A stretch of DNA of 22,682 bases from a virus: positions 1 to 22,682 of the IMG/VR virus record IMGVR_UViG_3300031688_000142. One strand, given 5' to 3'. A model generated the notes under the pieces. The model had not been told where the DNA came from and searched no databases. It saw nothing but the letters and a program-made list of their open reading frames with translations. The translations under genes were made by a program, and so were the position numbers. Shown piece by piece: positions 11,332 to 22,151 of the stretch (position 1 is the stretch's first letter; each line of letters starts with the position of its first letter).

Positions 11332-12405
11332 ATGAAGATAGGAACGGATTTTAGTGGAATAGGTTCACCTGAGAGTGCATTGAAAAGGTTAGGTTTAGAT
11401 ATAGATGAGGTTTTTGCTTGTGAGATTGACAAGTTTGCAAGAGCTTCGTTTAATGAGTTGCATAATCCTACTACAATGTATGAGGATATAACGACAAGGA
11501 ATCACTCAGAAGTGCCTCAGTTAGATTTGTATGTAGCAGGTTTCCCTTGCCAGTCATTTAGTTTAGCAGGTAAGCGTGGAGGGTTTGAAGATACAAGAGG
11601 AACTCTATTTTTTAATGTAGCTGAGTTTATAAAAGAGAATCAACCTAAGTGCTTTGTACTGGAGAATGTAAAAGGATTACTTTCACACGACAACGGAAGA
11701 ACATATCAAACCATTACAGATGTGCTAACGAATGGGGGTGGTACTTTAAACGGACAGATAGGTTTAGATTCCATAGATAATGGATTAGGGTATCATGTGT
11801 ACGCTCAAGTGTTAAACTCTAAGGATTACGGTATACCACAAAATAGAGAGAGAATATTTATAGTAGGGTTTAAAGAATTTAGAGAGTTACGATTCCCTAA
11901 GAAGATGGAGTTAAAGTTGAGGTTAAAGGATTTACTAGAGAAGGAAGTAGATGAGAAATATTATTTGAGTGATAAAAAAATAGCCTTTCTGAAAAGAGCA
12001 GAAGGTACAACATTCAATATAAATAAAGATTTATTAAAAAAAGAACTAAATGATTTATCCAGAACAATAACTAGTAGCTACTACAAGGCAGGTAGGACAG
12101 AACAATACATCTCTCACTCACTTTACCCAAGAAGCTCTAAGACAGGTAAGGGGGGTTCTGGTCATTTATCTAAAGCAGATGGCACAAGTTATTGTGTAGA
12201 TACTGGTTGTTCGCAAGGGGTTGAAGTAAATAAAAGAATAAGAAGATTAACACCTTTAGAGTGTTGGAGATTACAAGGATATACTGATGAGCAATTTAAC
12301 AAAGCTCAGAAAGTAAACTCAGATACTCAGTTATATAAACAAGCAGGTAACTCTATAACCGTTGATGTGATGGTAGAATTATTTAAAAAGATATACGACA
12401 TCTAA
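11332..12405 (+). CDS. DNA (cytosine-5) methyltransferase
   Basis: A complete 357-aa C5-MTase that transfers a methyl group from S-adenosylmethionine to cytosine C5. Motifs in order: I DFSGIGS (6-12), IV FPCQSF with catalytic Cys73, VI ENV (111-113), VIII QNRER (170-174), variable target-recognition region (about 185-300), IX RRLTPLECWRLQGY (304-317) and X AGNSI (338-342). No restriction endonuclease partner is beside it, so it probably protects phage DNA from host restriction, or mimics a host pattern. The recognition region is more A-rich than the flanking coding sequence, as expected for a swapped specificity segment. The target sequence cannot be deduced. Confidence 0.9.
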   Translation: MKIGTDFSGIGSPESALKRLGLDIDEVFACEIDKFARASFNELHNPTTMYEDITTRNHSEVPQLDLYVAGFPCQSFSLAGKRGGFEDTRGTLFFNVAEFIKENQPKCFVLENVKGLLSHDNGRTYQTITDVLTNGGGTLNGQIGLDSIDNGLGYHVYAQVLNSKDYGIPQNRERIFIVGFKEFRELRFPKKMELKLRLKDLLEKEVDEKYYLSDKKIAFLKRAEGTTFNINKDLLKKELNDLSRTITSSYYKAGRTEQYISHSLYPRSSKTGKGGSGHLSKADGTSYCVDTGCSQGVEVNKRIRRLTPLECWRLQGYTDEQFNKAQKVNSDTQLYKQAGNSITVDVMVELFKKIYDI

Positions 12406-13117: not shown

Positions 13118-13250
13118 AGAAAAGAAGATAGTTACAGATAACAACTGGGTTCTTGTGGTAGGTGGTCAATTGCCTGATATAAAAAGCCAAGAGTCTTTAG
13201 ATAAGAGAGCTAAACGAAGAAAAAAATACAATGTAAGAGATGAAGAATAA
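13110..13250 (+). CDS. Small basic protein
   Basis: A 46-aa ORF (MNKEKKIVTDNNWVLVVGGQLPD... DKRAKRRKKYNVRDEE) overlapping the gene before by 8 nt and the VRR-NUC gene after by 11 nt; without it a 122-nt gap would exist. The C-terminal KRAKRRKK cluster suggests nucleic acid contact. No family recognised. Confidence 0.5.
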   Translation: MNKEKKIVTDNNWVLVVGGQLPDIKSQESLDKRAKRRKKYNVRDEE

Positions 13251-13584
13251 AGAAGATGATTTACAAACTGCAGTAGTTACTTACTTAAAGTTAGAATATA
13301 AAGCTTTGTTCTGTGCTTCTCTCGGAGGTCAGTATCAGAAGTACCAATCTCAGAGAATGAAAGCCAAGAGGACAGGATATGTAGCAGGGTTTCCTGACTT
13401 ATTCATCTATGAACCTAGAGGTAAGTATAGTGGTTTAGCTTTAGAACTTAAGGTAAAGGGTAACTACGCAAGTCCAAAGCAGAAGAAATGGTTGTTGGAT
13501 TTAGTAGATAGAGGATATGATGCATGGGTTTGCACTGGATTCGATCAAGCAAAAGAAGTGATAGATAATTATTTCAATCAATAA
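13240..13584 (+). CDS. VRR-NUC domain nuclease
   Basis: A 114-aa stand-alone VRR-NUC protein (a PD-(D/E)XK-type fold). Residues in the usual order: E5 with EDDLQ at the start, AGFPDL with Asp53, ALELKVK with Glu69 and Lys71, and Q81 in SPKQKKW. Single-domain phage members act as structure-specific nucleases, for example resolving branched DNA or recombination intermediates before packaging. The length is normal for the stand-alone form. Confidence 0.85.
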   Translation: MKNKEDDLQTAVVTYLKLEYKALFCASLGGQYQKYQSQRMKAKRTGYVAGFPDLFIYEPRGKYSGLALELKVKGNYASPKQKKWLLDLVDRGYDAWVCTGFDQAKEVIDNYFNQ

Positions 13585-13592
13585 ATTAGTTT

Positions 13593-13600
13593 TATATTTG
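13593..13600 (+). promoter_or_regulatory. Bacteroidota -7 box TATATTTG upstream of structured leader
   Basis: TATATTTG lies 9 nt after the VRR-NUC stop; transcription is expected near 13606, so the transcript would begin with the structured region and run into the Mom-like gene. No good TTTG at the -33 position. Confidence 0.6.
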
Positions 13601-13605
13601 CCTCA

Positions 13606-13765
13606 GTGAGTAAGCTACTTGAACGCTACACTAAAGCCCTATCGAAACCTAACAAGGTTTAATTTCAACACGATAGGCAGAGTTAAACCTTTGGGGTTTA
13701 AAAGTCAGTGTTGGGAAGGCAAGGGATTTCCTTCCCAACTATGAACTAACTAAAACACGACTAAG
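13606..13765 (+). ncRNA. Structured, possibly bistable leader RNA before the Mom-like gene
   Basis: 160 nt without an ORF hold several helices. An outer helix CCTATCG (13638-13644) / CGATAGG (13671-13677) encloses AAACCT / AGGTTT with loop AACA (13645-13660). A second hairpin is TTAAACC / GGTTTAA (13683-13701). A third is a perfect 10-bp stem GTTGGGAAGG / CCTTCCCAAC (13710-13739) that ends 26 nt before the start codon. AGGTTTAA (13655-13662) is also exactly complementary to TTAAACCT (13683-13690); that 8-bp pairing would break the first two hairpins. No T tract follows, so translation control or a stable RNA is more likely than termination. Confidence 0.55.
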
Positions 13766-14695
13766 ATGGAGGTTTTAAAAATAAAAAATTACGAGTGTAA
13801 AGATTGGCTTTTAAATAAACATTATGCTAAAAGGTTGTGTAGTATATCTTATGCGTTCGGGTTATATATAGATAAAGTACTAAGTGGTGTTGTAACGTTT
13901 GGTATGCCCCCTAGTGTTAATCTTGCTGAAAGTATTTGTGGGGTAGATATGAAAAATAAAGTGTTAGAATTAAATAGATTAGTAGTAAATGAGGGTTTAC
14001 CTAAAAACACTCTATCTTTTTTTGTTTCAAATGCAATAAATAAACTAACTAATAATAAAATAATAGTTTCTTTTGCTGACGCTAATATGTTTCACAATGG
14101 TTATATTTACCAAGCAACAAATTTCGTGTACACTGGGTTAAGTTCAAATACCACCAAATTAGTAGATAAAAACGGTGAAGAGTTCCATTTTAGAAATATA
14201 GGTCATTATCAAAAAAATAACAAATTAAATGTGAATTTAATAAAGAGAAGATTAAACGAAGAAAGTATAGATAAAAAACAAATAGCTGAATTTTTACGAG
14301 AGAATAAAAAAGGGATTAGCAATAAAGAATTAGAGAAAATAATTAAGGTAAATAAAACAACTATTGAGCATTGGTTTAGGTTAGATTCAGGATTTAGTTT
14401 CCCAACTATAGAACATTGGATTGAATTACAGAAAGCTTTATCGTTTGATGACACACATAATGATAAAATGATTGCTTTTGAAATGATTGCAGATTCCAAC
14501 GAAATAATAAATAAGTTAGAATTAAAAAAAGTTAATATATTACCAAAGCACAGGTATGTTTACTTTAAAGGAAGTAAAACATTTAAACAGAAGTGTTATA
14601 ATAACTTAAAGCTAAACATAACCAACTACCCTAAAGGAGAAAACAAAAGATACATAAATGTATATAAACCGAAAGTTCAGGGGGTTTTATTTTAA
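13766..14695 (+). CDS. Mom-like DNA modification enzyme with inserted helix-turn-helix
   Basis: A 309-aa protein. Residues 1-125 match the GNAT-fold Mom family, which makes a bulky N6-adenine modification in phage Mu: HYAKR (19-23), YAFGLY...SGVVTFG, ELNRL (68-72), then NTLSFFVSNAINKL and SFADANMFHNGYIYQATNF (102-120). The family's C-terminal signature KHRYVYFKGSK...YPKGENKRY is present at 251-286. Between them sits an extra domain (about 155-235), KKQIAEFLRENKKGISNKEL..., KTTIEHWFRLDSG, SFPTIEHWIELQKALSFDDT, which reads as a helix-turn-helix. The inserted HTH may set target specificity. The gene is distinctly AT-rich against its neighbours. It follows a structured leader RNA and an AACTAAAACACGACTAAGATG start context. 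Confidence 0.7.
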   Translation: MEVLKIKNYECKDWLLNKHYAKRLCSISYAFGLYIDKVLSGVVTFGMPPSVNLAESICGVDMKNKVLELNRLVVNEGLPKNTLSFFVSNAINKLTNNKIIVSFADANMFHNGYIYQATNFVYTGLSSNTTKLVDKNGEEFHFRNIGHYQKNNKLNVNLIKRRLNEESIDKKQIAEFLRENKKGISNKELEKIIKVNKTTIEHWFRLDSGFSFPTIEHWIELQKALSFDDTHNDKMIAFEMIADSNEIINKLELKKVNILPKHRYVYFKGSKTFKQKCYNNLKLNITNYPKGENKRYINVYKPKVQGVLF

Positions 14696-14720
14696 AAAAC
14701 CATAAACTAAGACAAACAAG

Positions 14721-14801
14721 ATGACACAAAAACTATTTATAATTACAACCCTAGTATTAATTATAGCATTTAAGCTATACGATAAATCAGTAAACAGATG
14801 A
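14721..14801 (+). CDS. Micro membrane peptide
   Basis: A 26-aa ORF with one hydrophobic helix (LFIITTLVLIIAFKLY) starting in an AACTAAGACAAACAAGATG leader. Its stop overlaps the next ATG (ATGA). The leader resemblance to other real starts supports translation, but no function is known. Confidence 0.4.
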   Translation: MTQKLFIITTLVLIIAFKLYDKSVNR

Positions 14802-14935
14802 ACAAAGATTTGGAAAAGAAACCTACAGAGATAGCATCAGCTATGTTTGAGAACTGGTTAAATGACTTAGAGGATAAAGAGCAACCTGAAGCTTGTAGTA
14901 TAGACAATGAAGATTGTGAAGCTTGTGGATCGTAG
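14798..14935 (+). CDS. Small acidic Cys-containing protein
   Basis: A 45-aa ORF (MNKDLEKKPTEIASAMFENW... ACSIDNEDCEACGS) with three cysteines at the C-terminus (C-x6-C-x2-C), perhaps a half metal-binding site. ATGA-coupled to the peptide before it; the next gene starts 29 nt before its stop. No family recognised. Confidence 0.45.
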   Translation: MNKDLEKKPTEIASAMFENWLNDLEDKEQPEACSIDNEDCEACGS

Positions 14936-15168: not shown

Positions 15169-15203
15169 GGGGGTGAAGGGTCATAGCTTCACCCCCTTTT
15201 TTT
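15169..15203 (+). terminator. Perfect Rho-independent terminator
   Basis: GGGGGTGAAG / CTTCACCCCC, a 10-bp perfect stem around the 8-nt loop GGTCATAG, followed directly by T7. The strongest terminator in the window. Confidence 0.95.
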
Positions 15204-16696: not shown

Positions 16697-16753
16697 ATGG
16701 GTTTATTCGGTGCTATAATATTCAGCATTACATTAATACTATTAACGACATGA
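16697..16753 (+). CDS. Possible 18-aa hydrophobic peptide between ParB-like and MTase genes
   Basis: MGLFGAIIFSITLILLTT, all hydrophobic, ending in ATGA overlap with the MTase start at 16750. The frame is also open upstream to GTG 16661 (30 codons), overlapping the ParB-like gene. A coupling peptide or micro membrane protein; real translation is uncertain. Confidence 0.25.
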   Translation: MGLFGAIIFSITLILLTT

Positions 16754-17496
16754 TTGAATTACATAAAGGAGATTGCTTACAAGTTATGAAGGGTATTCCT
16801 TCAGGTAGTGTAGATGCAATCATTACAGACCCACCGTACGGAACAACTGCGTGTAAGTGGGATTCAGTTATAGACTTTACTTTAATGTGGGAACAACTGA
16901 ATAGAATCATTAAACCGAACGGTGCTATTGTATTATTTGGAAGTGAACCTTTTAGTTCTGCTTTACGCATGAGTAACATAAAAAATTATAAGTACGATTG
17001 GAAGTGGGATAAAGTAAACTCTGGAAGCTTTGCAGTTGCTAAATATAGACCATTAACAGTTTTTGAAGATATTATTATTTTTGGTAAAGGCAGAATTAAT
17101 TATTACCCTATAATGGAATTAGCAGAAGATAAAAATAAACGACCAAGAAACGGAGAATATAAGCGTAAAAAAGATAATAGTAATGGAATGGGAAGTGGAG
17201 TATTTAAAAGCTCAAAAAAACATAATGAAAATTTAAGGTTTCCTAAAAACAGGCTTGTATATAATAAAAATAAAGGAGAATTAAACGCTATAAATAGAAT
17301 ACACCCAACACAAAAACCAGTATCACTTATGGAGTACTTAATTAAAACCTACACCAACGAAAATGAAACTGTTTTAGATTTTACAATGGGTTCAGGTAGT
17401 ACAGGAGTAGCAGCAAAGAATACCAACAGAAGCTTCATAGGTATTGAACAAGATGAGAAGTACTTCAATATAGCGAAGGATAGAATCAATGCGTAA
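16750..17496 (+). CDS. DNA amino-methyltransferase (N6-adenine or N4-cytosine), DPPY type
   Basis: A 248-aa beta-class amino-MTase: catalytic motif IV DPPYGTTACKWDSV near the N-terminus (DPPY 27-30), then the target-recognition segment (about 95-185), and the S-adenosylmethionine-binding motif I near the C-terminus (VLDFTMGSGSTG, 208-219, preceded by HPTQKPV). DPPY usually means N6-adenine, and GTTACKWDS is a common variant in phages. The recognition segment (17040-17340) is more A-rich than its flanks. It is coupled to the HNH gene by an 8-nt overlap and preceded by a ParB-like gene, so the three form a module. No classical restriction partner is seen. Confidence 0.85.
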   Translation: MIELHKGDCLQVMKGIPSGSVDAIITDPPYGTTACKWDSVIDFTLMWEQLNRIIKPNGAIVLFGSEPFSSALRMSNIKNYKYDWKWDKVNSGSFAVAKYRPLTVFEDIIIFGKGRINYYPIMELAEDKNKRPRNGEYKRKKDNSNGMGSGVFKSSKKHNENLRFPKNRLVYNKNKGELNAINRIHPTQKPVSLMEYLIKTYTNENETVLDFTMGSGSTGVAAKNTNRSFIGIEQDEKYFNIAKDRINA

Positions 17497-18306: not shown

Positions 18307-18320
18307 AAAACAAGACTAAG

Positions 18321-18413
18321 ATGAAGAAGAAAAATAACTTGTTTGAATGGTGCGTAGCTTCAATATTGGCAACGGGGGTGTTTTATTTGGCGATACTATT
18401 TTTAAACAACTAA
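18321..18413 (+). CDS. Micro membrane protein before terminase
   Basis: A 30-aa ORF with one hydrophobic helix (WCVASILATGVFYLAILFL), a basic N-terminus (MKKKNN) and an AAAACAAGACTAAGATG leader identical to that of the next gene, which supports translation. Function unknown. Confidence 0.5.
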   Translation: MKKKNNLFEWCVASILATGVFYLAILFLNN

Positions 18414-18425
18414 AACAAGACTAAG

Positions 18426-18785
18426 ATGGAAGAGAGAAAAGAGCAAAACAGAACAAAATTAGCTAAAGTACAGATGCTTAAAGCATTAGAGAAAACACTT
18501 GGAATTGTTACAGGTGCTTTAAAGATTGCAGAGATAACTAGAACGACCTACTACTCTTGGTTAAAGGCAGATGAGGAGTTTGCTGCTAAGGTTAAGGCAA
18601 TGGATAACTTAGTATTAGACTTTGCTGAGAGTAGCTTAATGAAGCAGATTAAAGAGGGTAATCATTCAAGTACTCAATTCCTTCTTAAGAATAAAGGAAA
18701 GGTAAGAGGGTACGGCGATAAGTTAGATATTACCAGTAACGATGAAACGATTAAAATACATATAGACCTTGGAAATAAGTCCTGA
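18426..18785 (+). CDS. Terminase small subunit
   Basis: A 119-aa protein with the N-terminal DNA-recognition HTH (about 20-60: LEKTLGIVTGALKIAEITRTTYYSWLKADEEF), the region by which small terminases pick packaging sites, then a central oligomerisation helix (AMDNLVLDFAESSLMKQIKEG) and NHSSTQFLLKNKGKVRGYGDKL (about 79-99), the usual end pattern. It is directly followed by the large subunit with a 17-nt overlap. Leader AACTAAAACAAGACTAAGATG. Confidence 0.8.
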   Translation: MEERKEQNRTKLAKVQMLKALEKTLGIVTGALKIAEITRTTYYSWLKADEEFAAKVKAMDNLVLDFAESSLMKQIKEGNHSSTQFLLKNKGKVRGYGDKLDITSNDETIKIHIDLGNKS

Positions 18786-21280: not shown

Positions 21281-21393
21281 TGAGTTTATGTAGTGAGGAT
21301 ATACTTAAACTAGATGAAGCTACAAAGATAAGTATAGAACAAGCGTTTACGTTTATGAGTTACAAACAGGATCAAGACAAGATAAAGAAATGA
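21169..21393 (+). CDS. Tail assembly chaperone, frameshift extension (T-like)
   Basis: A 74-codon open frame shifted by -1 against 20678-21280, overlapping it by 112 nt. It has no ATG near its start and is preceded by the slippery T9, so it should be read only as a fusion (164 + 74 = about 238 aa). Residues after the join include FGKKWGWYSILMSLCSEDILKLDEATKISIEQAFTFMSYKQD, a pattern (KWGWY ... l..gDi.k.de.......f.fl.Y..dk) known from C-terminal parts of tail chaperone-type proteins of Bacteroidota phages. Its stop overlaps the MTase start (ATGA). Confidence 0.65.
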   Translation: MDYRKRLLERFANLFSGGSGDVKQQNFGKKWGWYSILMSLCSEDILKLDEATKISIEQAFTFMSYKQDQDKIKK

Positions 21394-22151
21394 TAAAGTT
21401 AAACGAAGTAAGGAACGAGAATTGTCTAGACACGATGGGGTTGATGGAAGATAACTTTATTGATTTAACAGTTACCTCTCCACCTTACGACAATTTAAGA
21501 GACTACAACGGTTATTCTTTTGATTTTGAAAGTATAGCTAAAGAGTTATACAGAGTAACTAAGGTGGGAGGTGTGCTTGTTTGGATTGTAAGTGATGCTA
21601 CTGTAAAAGGAAGTGAGACAGGCACAAGTTTTAAGCAAGCATTATTCTTTAAGGAATGTGGCTTTAATTTAAACGACACCATGATATGGAATAAGGGTAG
21701 TTTTTCAGCCGTAGGTTCTCTCAAATCTAGATATGCTCCTGTATTCGAATACATGTTTATTCTAAGCAAAGGTAAAGCTAAGTCATTTAATCCTATCAAG
21801 GATAGAAAAAATAAGTGGGCAGGGGAGAAACGAAAGCATGTAATGTTTAGGCAAGCTAATGGTACTATAAAACAGACTAGCGGATCTGAAATTAAGGAAT
21901 TTGGGCAAAGGTTTAATATATGGAATTTGCCTCCATCAAAGAATAGGAGTATAAATCACCCTGCTACCTTTCCCGAGCAATTAGCAAATGATCATATAAT
22001 AAGCTGGAGCAACGAGGGTGATTTGGTTTATGATTGCTTTGCTGGAAGTGGCACAACTGCTAAAATGTCTATACTAAATAATAGAAACTACTTAGCTAGC
22101 GAAATGAGTGAGGAGTATTGTGAAATAATAAAAGAAAGAATCAAGAAATGA
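21390..22151 (+). CDS. DNA amino-methyltransferase (SPPY type) inside the tail operon
   Basis: A 253-aa beta-class MTase: TSPPYDNLRDY near the N-terminus (SPPY 30-33), target-recognition segment (about 115-180), then FPEQLAND...VYDCFAGSGTTAKMS (motif I, 215-223). SPPY is typical of N4-cytosine enzymes, though adenine specificity occurs. It is joined by ATGA overlaps to the chaperone extension on one side and to the next virion gene on the other, so it is an insertion adapted to the operon. Without a nearby nuclease it probably protects late progeny DNA. Target unknown. Confidence 0.85.
   Translation: MIKLNEVRNENCLDTMGLMEDNFIDLTVTSPPYDNLRDYNGYSFDFESIAKELYRVTKVGGVLVWIVSDATVKGSETGTSFKQALFFKECGFNLNDTMIWNKGSFSAVGSLKSRYAPVFEYMFILSKGKAKSFNPIKDRKNKWAGEKRKHVMFRQANGTIKQTSGSEIKEFGQRFNIWNLPPSKNRSINHPATFPEQLANDHIISWSNEGDLVYDCFAGSGTTAKMSILNNRNYLASEMSEEYCEIIKERIKK

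What the first reader, a model, noticed from the sequence alone, without database searches (positions are those of the whole stretch)
13606..13765. Structured, bistable-looking leader RNA in front of a Mom-like modification gene
Seen: five complementary segments in 160 nt. CCTATCG/CGATAGG encloses AAACCT/AGGTTT, TTAAACC/GGTTTAA forms a second hairpin, and a perfect 10-bp hairpin ends 26 nt before the ATG. AGGTTTAA (13655) can pair instead with TTAAACCT (13683) over 8 bp, breaking both first hairpins. Known: in phage Mu, mom is controlled by leader structure plus a translation activator because the enzyme is harmful early. No such leader is known to me for flavobacterial phages.
Basis: partly seen in the sequence, partly recalled or inferred. 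Interest (0 to 1): 0.75.

Follow-up and report, generated by a model that had tools for sequence, protein, structure and literature searches.

The report
Modular pseudoknotted RNA of marine phages
The folded RNA in front of this phage's DNA-modification gene is not that gene's private leader: it is one small copy of a previously uncatalogued, multi-part structured RNA carried once per genome by many sea-living viruses of bacteria, probably flavobacterial phages, with no known job yet.

Summary
Mom homologs 56-69% identical have no such leader. Relatives of this phage keep the RNA without mom; in L017 and L098 the RNA runs straight into the next gene. The RNA (about 13605-13741) belongs to a family found in over 110 IMG/VR contigs, one locus per genome in 17 of 17 records tested. 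No family member was found in 84,980 bacterial/archaeal genomes or 50,697 phage records, and Rfam has no match.

Its 5' module is an H-type pseudoknot supported by covariation (AAG/CUU, ACG/CGU, UUG/CAU). Longer members add a second pseudoknot of the same design, covarying hairpins, and an upstream pseudoknotted junction. Neighbouring genes fall into 29 upstream and 38 downstream clusters, so the RNA is not tied to one gene. The 8-bp alternative pairing behind the bistability claim is not conserved.

Best reading: a phage-specific modular structured RNA, comparable in kind to GOLLD/ROOL but unrelated by Rfam, most likely acting in trans; mom is later cargo. The family is shown; the function is inferred. 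Metagenome catalogues of unannotated structured RNAs could not be checked.

The parts
13593..13600 (+). TATATTTG, Bacteroidetes-type -7 box (TAnnTTTG); predicted transcript start about 13603-13606, at the 5' edge of the RNA (start position inferred)
   Evidence: Kept at identical spacing (-15 from GAG) in L017, L024, L025. Consensus matches of this kind are at chance level across the window; promoter type from general knowledge.
13605..13629 (+). Module A: H-type pseudoknot. S1 13605-13607 x 13617-13619; S2 13610-13615 x 13625-13629 with A13612 bulged
   Evidence: A3, 79 distinct sequences: 92.4% of cells paired, 48 double-change cells against 21 in shuffles; S1 middle pair AU43/CG30/UG2/UA1; S2 CG/UG/UA. 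Predicted third S1 variant found in L225.
13638..13677 (+). Module B: helix 13638-13644 x 13671-13677 enclosing hairpin 13645-13649 x 13656-13660 and UUUAAUUUCA
   Evidence: A2, 13 sequences: outer helix 100% paired, 3 of 7 pairs with double changes.
13683..13701 (+). Module C hairpin (UUAAACC/GGUUUAA)
   Evidence: Hairpin kept with different arms in relatives (AAAUC/GAUUU, UAGCA/UGCUA, AAGCU/AGCUU).
13710..13739 (+). Module D: perfect 10-bp closing hairpin
   Evidence: consensus D helix with double changes; pairing probability 1.0.
13740..13765 (+). A-rich leader of mom (CTAACTAAAACACGACTAAG); near-identical leader before the 18426 ORF
   Evidence: Second match 18408-18430, 96%.
13766..14695 (+). 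mom-like gene, 309 aa, between the RNA and the small ORF that directly follows the RNA in L017 and L098
   Evidence: Pfam/PHROGs; L017 element followed directly by window 14699; sequences of L017 and L098.
13240..13584 (+). VRR-NUC gene immediately upstream
   Evidence: PF08774, 2.4e-10.
14721..14801 (+). Small hydrophobic ORF (MTQKLFIITTLVLIIAFKLYDKSVNR), direct downstream neighbour of the RNA in L017 and L098
14798..14935 (+). Small acidic Cys-containing ORF (MNKDLEKKPTEIASAMFENWLNDLEDKEQPEACSIDNEDCEACGS), recurrent downstream neighbour
   Evidence: Acidic W-motif ORF within 1.6 kb in 22 of 86 RNA loci; second largest downstream cluster, 15.

Best explanation
The segment is a short member of a phage-specific, modular, pseudoknot-rich RNA family. 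Shown by sequence comparison: it is an RNA read from the + strand; its 5' module is an H-type pseudoknot; longer members append a second pseudoknot of the same design, hairpins, and an upstream pseudoknotted junction (M1); it is a single locus per genome; it tends to start near the upstream stop codon; it is independent of any particular neighbour, mom included. Inferred: the RNA is made from its own promoter here, or released from the operon transcript in phages where it overlaps the upstream stop codon, and acts in trans as a folded RNA, with the pseudoknots as docking sites for a host or phage protein or for other RNAs, as a discrete phage RNA of the GOLLD/ROOL kind. The target is unknown. 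Mom is later cargo in a variable spot just downstream.
For: Element present and mom absent in relatives; mom homologs without the RNA. More than 110 contigs, one locus per genome in 17 of 17, none in bacteria/archaea (with 70-71) or cultured phages. Pseudoknot covariation with slid and shuffled controls and a successful prediction. M1: 99.7% of cells paired, 9 of 18 pairs changed on both sides, pseudoknot helix included. M1 retrieved without using A: 19 of 20 have A 71-280 nt downstream, and the twentieth, L233, reads ACGUGAG-CUUCC-UACGUGAGU-GGAAG, the same module with a replaced S2 stem. 40 G.U against 3 A.C cells marks RNA of this strand. Neighbours in 29 and 38 clusters.
Against: No transcript data, so size, ends and trans action are unproven. 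Downstream genes are not random: small hydrophobic and acidic ORFs recur, which also fits a cis element. Only fragments were seen for most phages. M1 lies 2.5-4 kb from A in L169, L170 and L185, so M1 may be separable. G.U/A.C counts come from sequences retrieved with patterns that fix some positions.
Confidence: 0.55

Rival explanations
1. A cis-acting element of the phage operon mRNA (processing, stability, or transcription elongation control like HK022 put), useful whatever gene follows.
For: Starts near the upstream stop codon in many phages; upstream genes on the same strand in 85 of 95; downstream genes vary, which a general operon element allows. An intrinsic terminator-like hairpin lies about 1.4 kb downstream in the window (15169-15203).
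Against: put-type RNAs sit behind early promoters and are about 70 nt with two stem-loops (PMC9378689). Here downstream genes are mostly co-directional in only 63 of 84, often a tiny ORF then opposing genes. Strong sequence conservation of pseudoknot loops exceeds what a stability hairpin needs.
Confidence: 0.3
2. An anti-defence decoy: pseudoknots that mimic the RNA antitoxin of a host type III toxin-antitoxin system or engage another RNA-binding defence protein (a special case of trans action).
For: A and A2 are repeated H-type pseudoknots with conserved loops and free S2 stems. Type III antitoxins are repeated H-type pseudoknots, and phage TE escapes ToxIN by expanding a pseudo-ToxI (PMC5086642). 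Single copy and modular variation suit an arms race.
Against: Usually one, at most two recognised A-type modules; no matching sequence in bacterial genomes; no ToxN in 17 phages, but that search had no positive control.
Confidence: 0.12
3. A mom-specific bistable leader acting as a translational switch, as the first reader proposed (possibly a recent re-use of the older RNA).
For: Alternative helix is near-isoenergetic and favoured when the mom start is included, with the AUG paired.
Against: Not conserved; mom absent from relatives; start pairing ranks 3 of 38 gene starts, and 62 of 2000 shuffles and 53% of genome 40-mers do as well; MFE ignores the pseudoknot. The RNA is present at this site in relatives without mom.
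Confidence: 0.05

Closest known systems
GOLLD and ROOL ornate phage RNAs
   Same: Phage-encoded, folded, several pseudoknots, variable regions, function unknown; one member here (L163) has a tRNA-like gene inside the RNA, as some GOLLD linkers do (PMC12286853).
   Different: No Rfam match in the loci scanned; most members far shorter (about 110-450 nt against over 800 for many GOLLD); modular order; seen here only in uncultured viral contigs, the ones examined being marine Bacteroidetes-type.
Phage Mu com/mom leader
   Same: A structured RNA upstream of a Mom-family gene.
   Different: In Mu a hairpin next to a translation-inhibition structure, whose stem holds the start codon, is bound by Com (PMC6483171). 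Here the conserved RNA ends 26 nt upstream, the gene before is VRR-NUC, and the RNA occurs at this site without mom.
Type III toxin-antitoxin RNAs (ToxI, CptI)
   Same: Repeated small H-type pseudoknots.
   Different: No recognised toxin gene after the RNA, no long tandem array, extra hairpin modules.
HK022 put RNA
   Same: Phage-encoded structured RNA inside operons.
   Different: put is about 70 nt, two stem-loops, behind early promoters, no pseudoknot mentioned in the paper.
RT-14 RNA (Rfam RF02921)
   Same: Best sub-threshold Rfam match.
   Different: 21.1 bits against a gathering score of 48.1, E 0.69; no reverse transcriptase in 17 RNA-bearing phages.

Membership tests
Mu-type mom leader | Leader travels with the mom gene | tested here: not met
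   Mom homologs lack it; RNA-bearing relatives lack mom.
Mu-type mom leader | Start codon held in a conserved inhibitory stem | tested here: not met
   Conserved helices end at 13739; start pairing is seen only in window folds and is chance-level.
Mu-type mom leader | Adjacent com-like zinc-finger translation activator | tested here: inconclusive
   Upstream gene is VRR-NUC; no dedicated Com search was made.
GOLLD | Match to Rfam covariance model | tested here: not met
   No match in the window or in 12 loci carrying the RNA.
ROOL | Match to Rfam covariance model | tested here: not met
   Same scans.
GOLLD/ROOL | Homo-oligomeric RNA nanocage | not testable with these tools
   Needs cryo-EM or native gels.
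Type III antitoxin RNA | Toxin gene downstream in the same operon | tested here: inconclusive
   PF13958 in 0 of 17 genomes, but no control genome rang; downstream ORFs were listed but not all scanned by profile.
Type III antitoxin RNA | Tandem repeats of an H-type pseudoknot | tested here: inconclusive
   Second pseudoknot A2 follows in about a quarter of elements, never a long array.
Retron or RT-associated RNA | Reverse transcriptase gene in the same phage | tested here: not met
   PF00078 in 0 of 17, controls positive; many records are incomplete.
HK022 put RNA | Suppresses termination by binding RNA polymerase | not testable with these tools
   Needs transcription assays.
Riboswitch for a given gene class | Consistent downstream gene family | tested here: not met
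   83 downstream ORFs in 38 clusters, though short ORFs cluster poorly.

The most novel reading that the evidence does not exclude
A widespread, previously undescribed class of modular pseudoknotted RNA, restricted to uncultured marine Bacteroidetes phages, in which pseudoknot and hairpin modules are added, swapped and reordered; a trans-acting phage RNA machine or anti-defence decoy.
Probability: 0.55. Interest if true: 0.85.

Novelty: new variant of a known kind. Interest (0 to 1): 0.72.

Why it matters
Few phage-encoded structured RNAs are known, and the ornate ones (GOLLD, ROOL) still have no function. This one is abundant, small enough at about 110-150 nt for ordinary biochemistry, strongly supported by covariation, and naturally varied in module content, so its parts can be tested one at a time. 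It also corrects a tempting annotation: a structured leader before mom is not evidence for Mu-like control.

Tried and rejected
Rfam at gathering and relaxed thresholds: nothing but tRNAs and chance-level hits. Bistable switch: no conservation. Anti-start pairing with mom: chance level. Host origin: the only genome-contig hit lies inside a long coding ORF that looks like a dipeptidyl peptidase. L125 and L226 pattern hits excluded as chance (no family context). Cultured flavobacterial phages 11b, P12024S and P12002L, and the first 50 kb of phi10:1, show no copy. Retron and type III toxin genes not found (the ToxN search had no positive control). Antitermination at operon start: location argues against it. 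Literature: no description found in the open-access library. From my own knowledge, a published catalogue of over ten thousand candidate structured RNAs from viruses and phages (Fremin and colleagues, 2023) exists and may list pieces of this; it did not come up in the library. Structure prediction of proteins was not used because the finding is about RNA.

Full report
Observation. The inverted repeats are exactly as described and the region folds better than 200 of 200 dinucleotide shuffles (z -3.5). The gene after it is a true Mom-family gene. The phage is flavobacterial by its terminase (55% to Flavobacterium phage 11b) and portal (35% to Nonlabens phage P12024S).

Is it a mom leader? No. 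The ten Mom relatives fetched include two near-identical contigs (99.7-99.9% over about 7 kb). Of the other eight (56-69% identity), seven have the start region in the contig and in those the gene follows the upstream gene without any such RNA; L007 begins inside the gene. Fetching relatives through the neighbouring VRR-NUC gene showed the RNA in many phages without mom. In L017 the match jumps from window 13749 to 14699, and L017 and L098 read from the RNA straight into the small hydrophobic ORF, so the site without mom exists naturally. L018, L021 and L055 carry other genes there. None of 12 contigs with the same B module has mom within 1.6 kb; L117 and L244 end 32 and 618 nt after it. Of 17 RNA-bearing genomes only the window has a Mom match.

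Bistability. The 8-bp alternative helix is possible here (P 0.12; -43.9 against -44.2 kcal/mol), and adding the mom start makes it dominant in the model. Across relatives it pairs in 61.3% of cells against 60.4% in shuffles, a one-column slide does better, and L025, L052 and L054 keep 1-3 of 8 pairs. The predicted pairing of the mom start with the RNA is matched by 62 of 2000 shuffles and by 53% of 40-mers of this genome. It is best seen as chance, possibly a window-only quirk.

What it is. A stricter pattern found none in 84,980 bacterial and archaeal genomes, a second pattern found one that is a chance hit in a coding gene, and blastn found none in 50,697 phage records. In 17 records of 22-96 kb there is one locus each, with no hits for the reversed control pattern. 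Three records show a second match: in two it lies within about 400 nt, in the same element, and in G001 it is a distant match with 2 mismatches.

Structure. The conserved 5' module reads A(A/C)G(U/A)-GAG-YAAGC-Y-RC(U/G)U-GARY-GCURC. Its 5' flank pairs with the loop of the YAAGC/GCUR hairpin, giving an H-type pseudoknot. On 79 distinct sequences the S1 middle pair is AU43, CG30, UG2, UA1, with three exceptions that carry a one-nucleotide longer linker; S2 is CG49, UG17, UA13 with no C-A. The pattern left the S1 5' strand free, so this is not circular. I predicted that if the loop letter were A or C the flank must change; the search found one true member, L225, with UUG/CAU. A second pseudoknot of the same design (A2) has S2 stems CCA/UGG, UCC/GGA, GGC/GCU, ACC/GGU and others: covariation score 0.50 against 0.13 in shuffles. 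The shuffle control ignores relatedness; the slid control does not, and agrees.

The B helix, C hairpin and D helix also covary. G.U cells outnumber A.C cells 40 to 3, as expected for RNA of this strand and not for a DNA-level hairpin, with the caveat that retrieval patterns fix some positions.

Larger members. Upstream of A many phages carry further modules. M1, an about 80-nt junction with its own pseudoknot, has 99.7% of cells paired and 9 of 18 pairs changed on both sides. A scan for M1 alone gave 20 contigs; 19 have module A 71-280 nt downstream, and L233 has the same module with its S2 stem swapped to CUUCC/GGAAG. In L169, L170 and L185 M1 is 2.5-4 kb away. Order varies (M1-M2-A, M2-M1-A, M3-A-A2, M4-A). 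L163 has a tRNA-like gene with a long insertion between A and A2.

Context. Upstream ORFs fall into 29 clusters and downstream ORFs into 38, including nuclease- and helicase-like genes upstream and small hydrophobic ORFs, acidic Cys ORFs, HNH-like and methyltransferase-like genes downstream (names of genes other than those are by eye). In the window and three relatives a TAnnTTTG box sits at a fixed distance so that transcription would begin at the edge of the pseudoknot; elsewhere the element often overlaps or abuts the upstream stop codon.

Mechanism. The family, its structure and its independence of mom are shown. That it acts in trans is inferred from neighbour independence, single copy, phage restriction, conserved pseudoknot loops and frequent position near the end of a gene run. 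A general cis-acting operon element remains possible, and an anti-defence decoy is an attractive special case. No experiment here decides among them.

Known relatives. It is most like the ornate phage RNAs GOLLD and ROOL (PMC12286853) but is not a member by Rfam models. It is not a Mu-type leader (PMC6483171), nor a put RNA by architecture (PMC9378689), and no toxin gene of type III systems was found with it (PMC5086642; the toxin search had no positive control).

Noticed in passing
L163:7214-7350 (-): A tRNA-like gene (Rfam tRNA 33.4 bits) with a long insertion lies inside the RNA element, between modules A and A2; ARAGORN does not call it.
   Followed up: partly
window 13766-14695: The Mom-like protein has a C-terminal extension of about 140 aa with a weak HTH/regulator-like match (phrog_8), kept in the closest relatives (L003-L006, 59-69% identity).
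   Followed up: no
window 11332-12405, 16750-17496, 21390-22151: Besides Mom the phage encodes one C5-cytosine and two N6/N4 DNA methyltransferases.
   Followed up: no
window 15169-15203: Strong intrinsic terminator-like hairpin (GGGGGTGAAG/CTTCACCCCC plus T-run) closes the gene group after the RNA.
   Followed up: no
window 13748-13768, 18307-18323, 18408-18430: Shared A-rich leader (AAAACAAGACTAAG-ATG) in front of several genes, probably the phage's translation-start context.
   Followed up: partly
window 14798-14935 and downstream of the RNA in 22 of 86 loci: Small acidic ORF with F(E/D)(S/N)W(L/I)xDL and C-terminal cysteines, recurrent next to the RNA; blastn matches suggest it is also present where the RNA is absent.
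   Followed up: partly
L169, L170, L185: Module M1 occurs 2.5-4 kb away from module A, suggesting it can be an independent element.
   Followed up: no
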